DNA from: a virus
DNA: 21,704 nucleotides
Direction: 5' to 3' (one strand)
IMG/VR virus record: IMGVR_UViG_3300048023_000579
Span: 1-21,704 of that record
Shown here piece after piece: positions 16,787 to 21,408 of the stretch. Every line of letters begins with the position of its first letter. The first letter of the stretch is position 1. Made by a program: the position numbers and the translations under genes. A model generated the notes under the pieces. That model did no database searches. It was not told the origin of the DNA and saw only the letters and a list, made by a program, of their open reading frames with translations.

Positions 16787-16794
16787 TATAAATA
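16787..16794 (+). promoter_or_regulatory. Late promoter octamer TATAAATA, two bases before an ATG
   Basis: Exact octamer in the 14-base gap after the giant virion gene. The next gene's ATG begins at 16797, only two bases after the octamer, so a transcript starting at the usual distance would begin at or just inside that start codon. It may therefore serve mainly the downstream fibre-like genes (17041, 17892) while the small gene is read from longer transcripts. Confidence 0.7.
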
Positions 16795-17891: not shown

Positions 17892-18866
17892 ATGGCTGGT
17901 CCAATAACACTTGAAGCTGGAAGTTATCCTGTAGCCGCAGATGGGCTACAAGGTTTTCGTGAACTAACAGCAACGGAAATTCGTAATCAAATTGCTGGTG
18001 TTATTACCCAAAAGTTTGCTACTGATACGGATGGGTCTGGTACTGCTGAACTAAACGTTGTTACTGGTGGTTCTGCTGGTTCTGATGAGATTGGAACCTT
18101 TTCCGACAGGGCAAGAACTGAATCCGTTGGAACCCACCCCGCTGCTGGTACTATCACTACAACCACGTTTCGTTTCAATCAACCCGTTGCTAGTGTGAGT
18201 GAATCTGGGCAAATCAATCCTTTGCAATGGACAAATACATCTGTCGATGAAATGACAGATTCAGAAATTGATTCAGAAATTCTTGATGAAGTTATCAATG
18301 CAATGGTATTGGAAGACGAACATACTGTGGGTCAGTACAAGGTTGATACTTCTACCCCCTCCGGTGGAACGTGGACTTCTCGGTATACTATCCCAGATAC
18401 GCAAACCGATGGTACTACCGTAAACTATTATCTCTGGCAAAAAACTGCGGCGACAACGGATGCGGGTTCTAGTACTAACATGCTTCTCCAAGTCGATGCA
18501 GACGGTAATATCGATGAGATGACAGAGGCTGACGTAGAAACTCTGGTTCCTGCTTTCAGAAACAGAATCATTGCTTCTGGTGTTGGTACATATTTACTGC
18601 AAACTGGTTCTCCGACTGCTACTGGGTCTTGGACTCAGATGGGTGGAACGATGACTGACCAGTTAAAGACTATCGTTTCAGAAAACTACTCAGGTGAATA
18701 TGCTGGGTCGTATACTGGTTACTATGACAGATTCTTTTCTGGATTCTTAAATGGTGCCTATGCGGGTACATACTCAGGAACGTACTACGGTGAATATGCC
18801 GGTGATACCATCCAATCTTCTAGTTCTACTCAAGAGACGAAACAACTTTTTGTAAGAACCGCTTGA
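17892..18866 (+). CDS. Virion structural / fibre-like protein with Tyr-Gly-rich tail (324 aa)
   Basis: The N-terminal part (MAGPITLEAGSYPVAADGLQ, then GFRELTATEIRNQI) leads to EIGTFSDRARTESVGTHPAA followed by TTTTFRFNQ, a block typical of phage virion structural proteins. The middle is beta-rich with acidic DEMTDSEIDSEILDEV and DEMTEADVETLVPAFR segments that look like a loose duplication. From about residue 266 to 305 the sequence becomes a Tyr/Gly repeat (YSGEYAGSYTGYY, AYAGTYSGTYYGEYAGD). Such Y-G runs recur in marine phage fibre proteins and probably form a regular beta structure. No enzyme motif is visible. The start at 17892 has the strongest ribosome binding site in the window (TAAGGAG, 17878-17884, overlapping the previous stop). 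It is the last gene before a terminator, so it closes the structural block. Confidence 0.82.
   Translation: MAGPITLEAGSYPVAADGLQGFRELTATEIRNQIAGVITQKFATDTDGSGTAELNVVTGGSAGSDEIGTFSDRARTESVGTHPAAGTITTTTFRFNQPVASVSESGQINPLQWTNTSVDEMTDSEIDSEILDEVINAMVLEDEHTVGQYKVDTSTPSGGTWTSRYTIPDTQTDGTTVNYYLWQKTAATTDAGSSTNMLLQVDADGNIDEMTEADVETLVPAFRNRIIASGVGTYLLQTGSPTATGSWTQMGGTMTDQLKTIVSENYSGEYAGSYTGYYDRFFSGFLNGAYAGTYSGTYYGEYAGDTIQSSSSTQETKQLFVRTA
18687..18806 (+). repeat. Tyr-Gly (Y-x-G-x-Y) low-complexity repeat in the fibre-like protein
   Basis: About 40 codons are dominated by Tyr, Gly, Ser, Thr and Ala in a Y-[AST]-G-x-Y periodicity, broken once by an aromatic FFSGFLNGA segment. At the DNA level it is a degenerate repeat around TAT/TAC and GGT/GGA codons. 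It ends shortly before a Ser/Thr/Gln tail. Confidence 0.75.
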
Positions 18867-18870
18867 TTAT

Positions 18871-18899
18871 TTGACATATATACTAGTGGGTGTTATAAT
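18871..18899 (+). promoter_or_regulatory. Consensus sigma70-type promoter (TTGACA, 17 bp, TATAAT)
   Basis: The -35 box TTGACA (18871-18876) and -10 box TATAAT (18894-18899) are both perfect and separated by the ideal 17 bases. Transcription should start near 18906, giving a leader of about 29 bases before the ATG at 18935. Unlike the TATAAATA late promoters upstream, this one can be read by unmodified host polymerase, so the genes behind it are likely expressed early or throughout infection. It overlaps a terminator hairpin. Confidence 0.9.
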
Positions 18900-18917
18900 A
18901 CGCCCACAGTATTTTTT
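18880..18917 (+). terminator. Intrinsic terminator whose loop is the -10 box of the overlapping promoter
   Basis: An 8-bp inner stem (18886-18893 with 18900-18907, one G-U pair) extends after a single bulged A (18885) by five more pairs (18880-18884 with 18908-18912). The T run 18912-18917 follows directly. The six-base loop is TATAAT, the -10 box of the promoter for the next unit. It would stop structural transcripts arriving from upstream, while transcripts starting near 18906 lack the left arm and cannot form the hairpin. Confidence 0.85.
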
Positions 18918-18925
18918 ATAGTATG

Positions 18926-18934: not shown

Positions 18935-19372
18935 ATGGACTCTCAACCAAAATATCGTAACCCCCGCTGGCTTGATAAAGAGAACCGCAGAGTTTTTTGT
19001 GAGATTCTTGTGGGTGACGTATATCGCCCCTGCAACATCAATGTCGGAAATCCAGAAGAAGGTCTGTCCAACAGAGACTTTGATGCAATCATGGAAGAGT
19101 TCGGCGAAGAGGTGTTGGACGAAAACACTGTTCGCCATCAGGAAAGTGCTGACGAAGAACTTAAAAAACGCGAAGAGACGCAAGAGATTCATCACAACAG
19201 GATGAAACAAGAAACCCTGTTTGAGATGAAACTTCAAGCATTTGAGTCTGAGTATATTAAGAACTCCGACAATAAAGAACTCAAGAAACTTCTAAGAAAA
19301 GCAAAGACTCTTATCGAAGTACAATCATTTGCTACCATTCTGATACAAGAAGAACTTAATAAGTCAGAATGA
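18935..19372 (+). CDS. Acidic helical protein of unknown function (145 aa), first gene of the accessory unit
   Basis: I do not recognise a named family. The first third (PKYRNPRWLDKENRRVFCEI, then LVGDVYRPCNINVGNPEEG) looks like a small beta unit with an 'xNPRW' opening; the rest is highly charged helix rich in Glu and Lys (EEFGEEVLDENTVRHQESAD, KKREETQEIHHNRMKQE), ending in a Leu-rich segment (KKLLRKAKTLIEVQSFATIL). A beta unit followed by charged helix, placed right after a fibre gene, resembles small tail-fibre assembly chaperones; this is only an analogy. It differs from the structural genes in being read from the sigma70-type promoter. The start at 18935 is chosen for its AGGA site. The stop overlaps the next ATG (ATGA, 19369-19372), so it is coupled to the glycosyltransferase. 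Confidence 0.75.
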   Translation: MDSQPKYRNPRWLDKENRRVFCEILVGDVYRPCNINVGNPEEGLSNRDFDAIMEEFGEEVLDENTVRHQESADEELKKREETQEIHHNRMKQETLFEMKLQAFESEYIKNSDNKELKKLLRKAKTLIEVQSFATILIQEELNKSE

Positions 19373-20097
19373 ACGGATACCTGTACGTTGCTACGGTCAA
19401 GTATGAATATTACTTGGCCGCGAAGGAATCTGCCCTATCTCTTTTGGATTTTCACCCAGAAGCCAATATCTGTTTATTTACTTTACCAGAGTGGATAGAA
19501 GAAGACGATCATAAAATATTTGATCGCATCATAACAGATATCCCGAATCATATCAGAACAAAACTGTGGGCGTTGTCACGAACCCCATACGATCTAACAC
19601 TTTATGTAGACTGCGACACTTGGATTCAAGATGAGGAGATACAAGATATCTTCAATCATATCGGAGACAACGATATAATCTTCACTCGCAATCGTCCGTA
19701 TAACTCAAAGATCACACAACTCAATGACGAAGAAGAGATGATCTATCACTGCGGCATTTTTCTATATAAGAAAAGTACGCATATAGTTGAGTTGATGGAC
19801 GATTGGTATGAATACTATTGCAGACAGATATCTGAAGGTTATGATATAAGTCCGTATCCAGAAAAGGCCAGACCGTGGGATACGTTCACTATGTGGTATC
19901 TACTAAATAAAACTAAGCACAAAGATACCATAAAAATAGGAGATTTTCCATCACCGGACGCAAGGTGGAATTTTTGTATGGGGCAAAGACCGGAAGAACT
20001 AGAAGGTCAAGATGTAATCATCACTCACTACAGTTTAGGAAAAATCACATTAAATGATAAACATACCAATAAATCAAGAACTTCAGAAGTCTCTTGA
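19369..20097 (+). CDS. DxD-type glycosyltransferase (GT-A fold, GT8-like)
   Basis: The 242-residue protein begins YLYVATVKYEYYLAAKESAL, followed by RTKLWALSRTPYDLTLYVDC and DTW. Asp81-Cys82-Asp83 is a typical DxD motif, which holds the metal and nucleotide-sugar in GT-A enzymes. A later acceptor-side segment reads YHCGIFLYK, then RPWDTFTMWYLLN, and near the end ITHYSLGK supplies His220, matching the C-terminal metal-binding His of GT8-like enzymes. No signal peptide or membrane segment is seen, so it should act in the cytoplasm. The sugar and acceptor are unknown: host lipopolysaccharide, virion protein or another glycan are all possible. It overlaps the previous gene by ATGA, and its last 44 bases overlap the next gene; the final 15 or so residues are polar and may be incidental. 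It sits with an oxygenase-like protein and an SGNH hydrolase. Confidence 0.85.
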   Translation: MNGYLYVATVKYEYYLAAKESALSLLDFHPEANICLFTLPEWIEEDDHKIFDRIITDIPNHIRTKLWALSRTPYDLTLYVDCDTWIQDEEIQDIFNHIGDNDIIFTRNRPYNSKITQLNDEEEMIYHCGIFLYKKSTHIVELMDDWYEYYCRQISEGYDISPYPEKARPWDTFTMWYLLNKTKHKDTIKIGDFPSPDARWNFCMGQRPEELEGQDVIITHYSLGKITLNDKHTNKSRTSEVS

Positions 20098-20662
20098 CGA
20101 TTATATTACTTGGTTCAATAAAAAAGACTTTGAACTCCCAATGGCCGAAAACCACGAAGATGGTTTGGGTATAGACTACTATTGTTCCAAAGAATATCTG
20201 GACACTGTAATCGACAAGGGCAAAGATCATAAAGGTCCACCCGAGTTTGGCATCACATGCAGTTTTCAAACTACACCCAACGTACCAGAAGAAGCTAGAT
20301 CAAAGTCACTAGACTTTTGTACTTCCTTGTCTTCTTATCTAGGAGCAAAGTATACTGCGGTACATGTTTACTACCCACCAGACGGGTTCATGTCTTGGCA
20401 TTGTAATTGGGATTGTCCCGGCTACAATATTCTACTGTCCCATAGTGACGGTGGTGGATTCTTCAGACACCTAGAAGACGGTGAGATCAAAACCATCCAT
20501 GACCCAGCGGGATGGTCTGTCAAGGTTGGATACTACGGTGGCAAGGATGAGGAACCATACTGGCACTGCGCCGGATCAACAAGTCCCAGACAAACGATTG
20601 GGTTTGTCATCCCAGATAAAAATATGTGGGAGATGATGGTGGAGGACATTGGTTTAGAATGA
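20054..20662 (+). CDS. Cupin / 2OG-Fe(II) oxygenase-like protein with HxN in place of HxD
   Basis: The 202-residue product has the outline of a jelly-roll 2-oxoglutarate/iron oxygenase. YTAVHVYYPPDGFMSWHCNW holds the first metal-site His (His116); a GGGFFRHLEDGEI strand pair and HDPAGWSVKVGYYGG follow; then YWHCAGSTSPRQTIGFV gives a second His (His171) and an Arg eight residues later (Arg179), the usual spacing for the 2-oxoglutarate-binding Arg. The usual acidic ligand two residues after the first His is Asn118 here, with Asp120 close by. Activity is therefore uncertain: iron could be held in another way, or the protein may be a binding scaffold. Similar small phage proteins lie beside glycan enzymes. 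The ATG at 20054 is 44 bases inside the glycosyltransferase gene, with only a distant AGGA (20037-20040). The stop forms an ATGA overlap with the hydrolase gene. Confidence 0.75.
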   Translation: MINIPINQELQKSLDDYITWFNKKDFELPMAENHEDGLGIDYYCSKEYLDTVIDKGKDHKGPPEFGITCSFQTTPNVPEEARSKSLDFCTSLSSYLGAKYTAVHVYYPPDGFMSWHCNWDCPGYNILLSHSDGGGFFRHLEDGEIKTIHDPAGWSVKVGYYGGKDEEPYWHCAGSTSPRQTIGFVIPDKNMWEMMVEDIGLE

Positions 20663-21408
20663 AACTGATGCACAAAGAAGGTGACCAGTTGTGGCCGAAG
20701 GTCAGAAGTATCGGTGGCCAAGTTGTGGGTTATGATCCAGACAGCACTGCTGGATATCTGTTATCTGACAATCCAAATTTTTCTGACTACAATGAAGACT
20801 ATGGTCACCGAATATCATATGACTTCAATTATGCTGGACACAGAACACCAAAAACTTTTAACAAAACAAATCACTTCTTAGTTGTAGGTGGTTCTCAGAC
20901 ATTTGGTACTGGAGTGCCAGAAGATAAGTGCTACCCATCACTAATTGCAAAACGTTTGGGTATGGACTATTACAACATGTCTTTGCCTGGCGTGTCTCAT
21001 GACATAAACATTTCAAATCTATTGTGGTATCTATCTACATACTCTCCCAAGTTCATACTGTGGGAGTGGTTATTCGACTCAAGAAATTATTTAATTCTTC
21101 CGCATATGGATGATATGGTTCTGCCCTTGATTTCAACCCATGTAGAAAAGTATGAAGAAGTTTTCGATGTCCGTGGACTGTCGGAATTTTTTCTATCTTG
21201 TAATGACGTTGGGTATAACAAATCCCGCAGGCAGTTACATGAGATGACATTACAAAATATTTCTAATATGCATAAAGTCCATCAATTTGATTTCAACAAG
21301 GACTTTGAAATAAATTCAATTGACGTTGGTAGAGACGGATTGCACTACGGAATTGATACTCACAAATCAATAGCAGAACTTCTAACTGTCGGATTAAACC
21401 TAGACTAG
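20659..21408 (+). CDS. SGNH/GDSL-family hydrolase
   Basis: The 249-residue product shows the family's key blocks. FLVVGGSQTFGTGV (about 73-86) carries the nucleophile Ser79 in a GGSQTxG setting equivalent to GDS(L). NMSLPGVSHDINIS (about 106-119) matches block II with its glycine. RDGLHYG near the end provides the DxxH pair (Asp226, His229) of the catalytic triad. The usual block III Asn is not obvious; the corresponding region is ILWEWLFDSRNY. SGNH enzymes commonly remove or transfer acyl groups on carbohydrates or lipids. No signal peptide is seen, so a cytoplasmic or virion-borne role is likelier than secretion. The start at 20659 forms a 4-base ATGA overlap with the previous stop and is preferred over an in-frame ATG at 20626 lying within the previous gene. 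Next to a glycosyltransferase it suggests acetyl-type editing of a glycan, which is inference. Confidence 0.85.
   Translation: MKLMHKEGDQLWPKVRSIGGQVVGYDPDSTAGYLLSDNPNFSDYNEDYGHRISYDFNYAGHRTPKTFNKTNHFLVVGGSQTFGTGVPEDKCYPSLIAKRLGMDYYNMSLPGVSHDINISNLLWYLSTYSPKFILWEWLFDSRNYLILPHMDDMVLPLISTHVEKYEEVFDVRGLSEFFLSCNDVGYNKSRRQLHEMTLQNISNMHKVHQFDFNKDFEINSIDVGRDGLHYGIDTHKSIAELLTVGLNLD

What the first reader, a model, noticed from the sequence alone, without database searches (positions are those of the whole stretch)
18871..18917. Terminator and promoter superimposed, with the -10 box as the hairpin loop
A perfect TTGACA-17-TATAAT promoter and a 13-bp (one bulge, one G-U) terminator hairpin with T run occupy the same 47 bases. 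The left arm is in the promoter spacer, the loop is exactly TATAAT, and the expected start (about 18906) falls near the end of the right arm. Upstream transcripts carry both arms and should stop; new transcripts lack the left arm and should not. One short element would close the late structural unit and open a host-polymerase-driven unit. The palindrome around the -10 box could also be a repressor site.
Basis: partly seen in the sequence, partly recalled or inferred. Interest (0 to 1): 0.72.

Follow-up and report, generated by a model that had tools for sequence, protein, structure and literature searches.

The report
Phage promoter inside a terminator hairpin
A 47-base stretch of an uncultured marine T4-like phage genome carries both a strong bacterial-type start signal and, wrapped around it, a stop-signal hairpin; relatives preserve the hairpin by matched mutations, and the same arrangement occurs in phage RB49, whose promoter/stem-loop elements (PeSLs) have been described since 2010.

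Summary
It lies between a run of structural genes with T4-type late promoters (TATAAATA) and a co-directional small-gene cluster. In 36 relatives of the upstream gene whose junction could be read, every distinct sequence folded has a hairpin here. In 11 distinct sequences the six core pairs form in all cells, and four pairs change on both sides. That argues for an RNA-level structure and against a sequence-specific operator. The T run is weak or absent in about half the distinct sequences. In three lineages the -10 is lost but the hairpin stays; two of these carry a TATAAATA late-promoter octamer instead. The same architecture occurs in phage RB49, which has promoter-early stem-loops (PeSLs): 8 of 77 near-consensus promoters against 0.8 expected. 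It also recurs among 123 virus promoter/T-run sites (15 against 0.3 expected). Verdict: a real composite promoter-terminator, a PeSL-type element, single-copy and syntenic here rather than dispersed. Function in vivo was not tested.

The parts
18871..18876 (+). -35 hexamer TTGACA
18894..18899 (+). -10 hexamer TATAAT, also the whole loop of the hairpin; TG at 18891-18892 makes it an extended -10
18880..18893 (+). left arm of the hairpin (18880-18884 AUACU, bulged A 18885, 18886-18893 GUGGGUGU), inside the promoter spacer
   Evidence: fold; core pairs covary in relatives
18900..18912 (+). right arm (ACGCCCAC, then AGUAU); expected +1 about 18906
   Evidence: +1 inferred from usual -10 to +1 distance
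18912..18917 (+). T run of the terminator (18912 also pairs with 18880)
17892..18866 (+). upstream ORF (324 aa), last gene of the structural run; its stop codon lies 4 nt before the -35
   Evidence: relatives; weak match to DUF7484, below the curated cut-off
18935..19372 (+). first downstream ORF, likely start ATG 18935 with a GAGGA Shine-Dalgarno just upstream (longer ORF from 18923 also open)
   Evidence: conserved start context in relatives
16787..16794 (+). T4-type late promoter octamer TATAAATA upstream of the 16797 ORF (others at 1037, 7352, 9350, 16946)
   Evidence: 5 matches, expected 0.99, 0 of 100 shuffles reach 5

Best explanation
A composite promoter-terminator (PeSL-type element) at a transcription-unit boundary. 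RNA polymerase coming from the late, structural side transcribes both arms, the hairpin forms and, with the U run, stops transcription at about 18913-18918. Sigma70-type holoenzyme initiates at about 18906 inside the right arm, so its RNA lacks the left arm, cannot form the hairpin and reads on into the ORF at 18935 and the genes after it. The element insulates the downstream unit from late transcription while driving it from a host-type promoter. Shown: both signals, their exact superposition, stem conservation by compensatory change, late-promoter octamers upstream. Inferred: termination efficiency, the start site, timing, and that a polymerase stopping at the T run would also occlude the promoter.
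For: Perfect promoter. Strong hairpin plus T6, and no hairpin in the new transcript. A hairpin is present at this junction in all distinct relative sequences folded. Core pairs 100% formed in 11 distinct sequences, 4 of 6 with double changes, 0 of 500 shuffles reach the covariation score, and slid controls drop to 33-41% paired (core arms aligned by hand and checked). In most lineages TTGACA and TATAAT stay intact around changing arms. Late octamers on the structural strand (26 against 3 on the two strands of a 161-kb relative). The same architecture in RB49, including a close analogue TTCTC-TATAAT-GGGAGTCTCCCTTTTCTTTT.
Against: T runs are short or absent in L199/L207 (TTT), L214/L215 (TTT) and L216/L217 (none), although the hairpin is kept, so termination may be weak or not the only function there. 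No RNA ends mapped. In L198 and L216/L217 the fold is no better than shuffled sequence (z about -0.4 to -0.6). The host is unknown, so use of sigma70 consensus by the host is assumed.
Confidence: 0.8

Rival explanations
1. The palindrome around the -10 is a repressor or activator operator acting as DNA; the RNA hairpin is incidental.
For: The arms flank the -10 symmetrically, an ideal place to block polymerase. Several relatives keep the palindrome without a T run.
Against: Arm sequences differ between relatives (GTGGGTGT, ATGAGTGT, GTAGGT, GGGAGTAT) while pairing is kept, so no fixed site is conserved. The palindrome stays, and is longer, in lineages that have lost the -10 (L218 group, L222 group).
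Confidence: 0.07
2. The hairpin is mainly an RNA 3'-end protector or processing site for the upstream structural mRNA, not an intrinsic terminator; the promoter overlaps it because intergenic space is short.
For: The hairpin is universal at this junction while the T run is not.
Against: In this window and in L193, L194, L198/L200, L202/L208 and L222 a run of 5-7 T closely follows the stem, the canonical intrinsic terminator form.
Confidence: 0.1
3. Chance: a terminator and a promoter fell on the same AT-rich junction and the overlap has no function.
For: AT-rich phage intergenic regions are short, and a -10-centred 8-bp stem has probability about 0.009 given this promoter.
Against: The superposition persists across relatives at 69-100% protein identity with compensatory stem changes. 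It recurs in RB49 and in 15 of 123 sites elsewhere against 0.28 expected.
Confidence: 0.03

Closest known systems
Promoter-early stem-loops (PeSLs) of T4-type phages RB49/phi1, and of PST/T4 and nt-1/KVP40 (Arbiol et al. 2010, doi 10.1093/gbe/evq006; Comeau et al. 2014, doi 10.1093/gbe/evu129; both known here only through citing papers and memory)
   Same: Strong sigma70-type promoter fused to a stem-loop, in a T4-like myovirus, at short intergenic gaps. In RB49 the -10 hexamer is likewise in or at the loop.
   Different: Single copy at one syntenic junction between the structural run and an accessory cluster, not many copies in hyperplastic regions. No sign that it mediates gene shuffling. 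In some relatives the early -10 is lost, and in two of those lineages a late-type octamer is present.
HGTV-1 haloarchaeal myovirus motif: TATA-box-like region plus inverted repeat before many ORFs, compared with PeSLs (PMC3950731)
   Same: Promoter core and inverted repeat combined in one short intergenic motif.
   Different: Archaeal promoter; repeated before most ORFs of one genome half; not tested here.
Ordinary intrinsic terminators at T4-like unit boundaries, some at conserved positions across genomes (PMC1524935)
   Same: G+C stem and T run right after a structural gene.
   Different: No promoter in the loop. The distant relative C48C1 has a terminator-like hairpin and T run upstream of its homologue of the downstream gene, with no consensus promoter there.

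Membership tests
PeSL (promoter-early stem-loop) | strong sigma70-type early promoter | tested here: met
   12/12 with extended -10; 'early' timing itself not testable
PeSL (promoter-early stem-loop) | stem-loop combined with the promoter in one short cassette | tested here: met
   same geometry as RB49 elements
PeSL (promoter-early stem-loop) | stem-loop is an effective terminator | not testable with these tools
   stem plus T6 predicted; needs in vitro or reporter assay
PeSL (promoter-early stem-loop) | several similar copies dispersed in hyperplastic regions | tested here: not met
   one convincing copy in the window, in G001-G003 and G005 and in the 161-kb relative G006; a BLAST search with the element finds no second copy there. 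The window's own genome is only a 21.7-kb fragment
PeSL (promoter-early stem-loop) | mediates modular gene shuffling | tested here: inconclusive
   the same gene follows the element in the relatives examined, so no shuffling seen; within-species gene-content comparison not done
Intrinsic (rho-independent) terminator | G+C-rich stem directly followed by a U run | tested here: met
   not met in relatives L199/L207, L214/L215, L216/L217
Repressor operator | conserved sequence-specific palindrome | tested here: not met
   arms change sequence by compensatory pairs

The most novel reading that the evidence does not exclude
Promoters whose -10 is the loop of a terminator form a widespread, repeatedly evolved class of self-insulating switch in phages. 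In this marine T4-like clade the insulating hairpin is the constant part, while the promoter overlaid on it can be swapped from host sigma70 type to late type, retiming the downstream genes without moving the unit boundary.
Probability: 0.3. Interest if true: 0.6.

Novelty: new member of a known kind. Interest (0 to 1): 0.42.

Why it matters
It gives a minimal (47-bp) unit boundary that stops one class of transcript and starts another, with covariation evidence that the stem is selected as RNA. It extends a regulatory element described in enterobacterial and Vibrio T4-like phages to an uncultured marine lineage, and offers natural variants (with and without T run, with and without -10) that make the division of labour testable.

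Tried and rejected
DNA search of known phages with the locus gave nothing. The two PeSL papers are not in the library, so the RB49 comparison was computed from its genome rather than read. C48C1, Pelagibacter phage HTVC008M and Methylophilales phage Melnitz showed no convincing -10-centred hairpins, so the element is not general in that wider group. In the automatic scoring, relatives L004-L007 were first assigned a different hairpin; folding showed the same one. Operator and chance readings rejected as above. MAFFT alignment of the whole junction is not structure-aware, so the covariation count used hand-aligned six-pair cores from 11 of the 17 aligned sequences; L214/L215, L218 and L229, whose stems are in another register, were left out, as were L200 and L203, which are near-duplicates of L198 and L199.

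Full report
What is there. The window is an uncultured virus record with T4-type baseplate genes; its gp6 homologue is closest among isolates to Pelagibacter phage HTVC008M, at 37% identity. Between the stop codon at 18866 and the ORF starting at 18935 lies TTGACA-17-TATAAT, the only perfect promoter in the scanned 20 kb. The hairpin 18880-18912 has 13 pairs, one bulge and one U-G pair, and its loop is exactly the -10 hexamer; it is followed by TTTTTT. RNA starting at about 18906 would keep only 7 bases of the right arm and has no stable fold.

Is it more than chance? The hairpin is 5 standard deviations below shuffles. Conditional on the promoter, the inner 8-bp stem alone has probability 0.009. 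The stronger evidence is comparative.

Relatives. Thirty-eight virus contigs encode a relative of the upstream protein, 54-100% identical, and 36 of them include the junction. They fall into about 16 distinct sequences. Each distinct sequence folded has a hairpin at this place, though in L198 and L216/L217 the fold is no better than shuffled sequence. In 11 distinct sequences with a comparable register the six core pairs form in 66 of 66 cells; four pairs change on both sides (A-U/G-C, G-C/A-U, U-A/A-U and others). The covariation score of 0.61 is reached by 0 of 500 shuffles (mean 0.30), and slid partners pair in only 33-41% of cells. The sequences are related and the cores were aligned by hand (arms verified), so the shuffle count is not a probability, but the double changes are read directly from the sequences. 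The promoter hexamers stay constant in most lineages while the arms around them change.

Natural variants. T run: 5-7 T in the window and in L193, L194, L198/L200, L202/L208 and L222; 3 or fewer in L199/L203/L207, L214/L215 and L216/L217. Promoter: the L222 group keeps TTGACA and a perfect 12-13 bp stem plus T7 but has lost the -10. The L218 group and L229 have lost both hexamers, keep a strong stem, and carry an exact TATAAATA, the T4-type late octamer, just upstream. In AT-rich DNA a TATAAATA is not rare, so the late-promoter replacement is a lead only. Overall the hairpin is the constant part and the promoter and T run vary.

Setting. Five TATAAATA octamers lie on the + strand of the window (expected 1), mostly just before structural genes, and a 161-kb relative has 26 on one strand against 3 on the other. 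This supports a late structural unit upstream. The downstream cluster is co-directional; its genes have no confident family assignment. A homologue of the first downstream gene in phage C48C1 follows a giant ORF and a terminator-like hairpin without a consensus promoter.

Comparison with the known. Phage RB49 carries PeSLs. I could not read the defining papers, only papers citing them, so I scanned the RB49 genome. Of 77 near-consensus promoters, 8 have a -10-centred inverted repeat scoring at least 18, against 0.8 expected, including AAGGGAGATTCTC-TATAAT-GGGAGTCTCCCTTTTCTTTT and GGGTGTATAGCATAATACACCC, the latter with nearly the same arms as this window. Most of those RB49 copies also lack a T run. 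The sample was chosen for a T run, so it shows recurrence, not frequency. The element here differs from RB49's in being single-copy and syntenic.

Conclusion. A genuine composite promoter-terminator of the PeSL kind, with good evidence that the stem is selected as a structure. Termination, start site and timing remain untested.

Noticed in passing
L120, L115, L087, L059, L092, L057, L077, L036 (sites found, listed): A second cluster of virus promoters has a short terminator hairpin centred about 13-14 bases downstream of the -10 (TATAATAAGGGGGTnnnnACCCTCTTTTTTATG), so the new transcript itself begins with a terminator; possibly leader attenuators or antitermination sites.
   Followed up: no
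L054 5399-5451 and 5777-5829; L055 1190-1243: Two near-identical promoter/hairpin cassettes (GAGCCGCTATAATGGCGGCTC) 378 bases apart in one contig and a close variant in another, like dispersed PeSLs.
   Followed up: no
L018, L020, L106, L127: Promoters nested in a wider hairpin whose left arm starts right after the -35 (for example CTCCCGT ... ACGGGAGTTTTTT), so the -10 and much of the spacer form a large loop.
   Followed up: no
L218-L221 and L229, junction after the upstream ORF: Exact TATAAATA late octamer in place of the sigma70 promoter, followed at once by the conserved hairpin.
   Followed up: partly
window 20626-21408 and 19369-20097: The downstream ORF at 20626 has a GGSQTFG motif suggestive of an SGNH hydrolase (only a weak DUF6473 hit, below cut-off); the ORF at 19369 has a YVDCDTW motif suggestive of a glycosyltransferase. 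Both assignments are by eye.
   Followed up: partly
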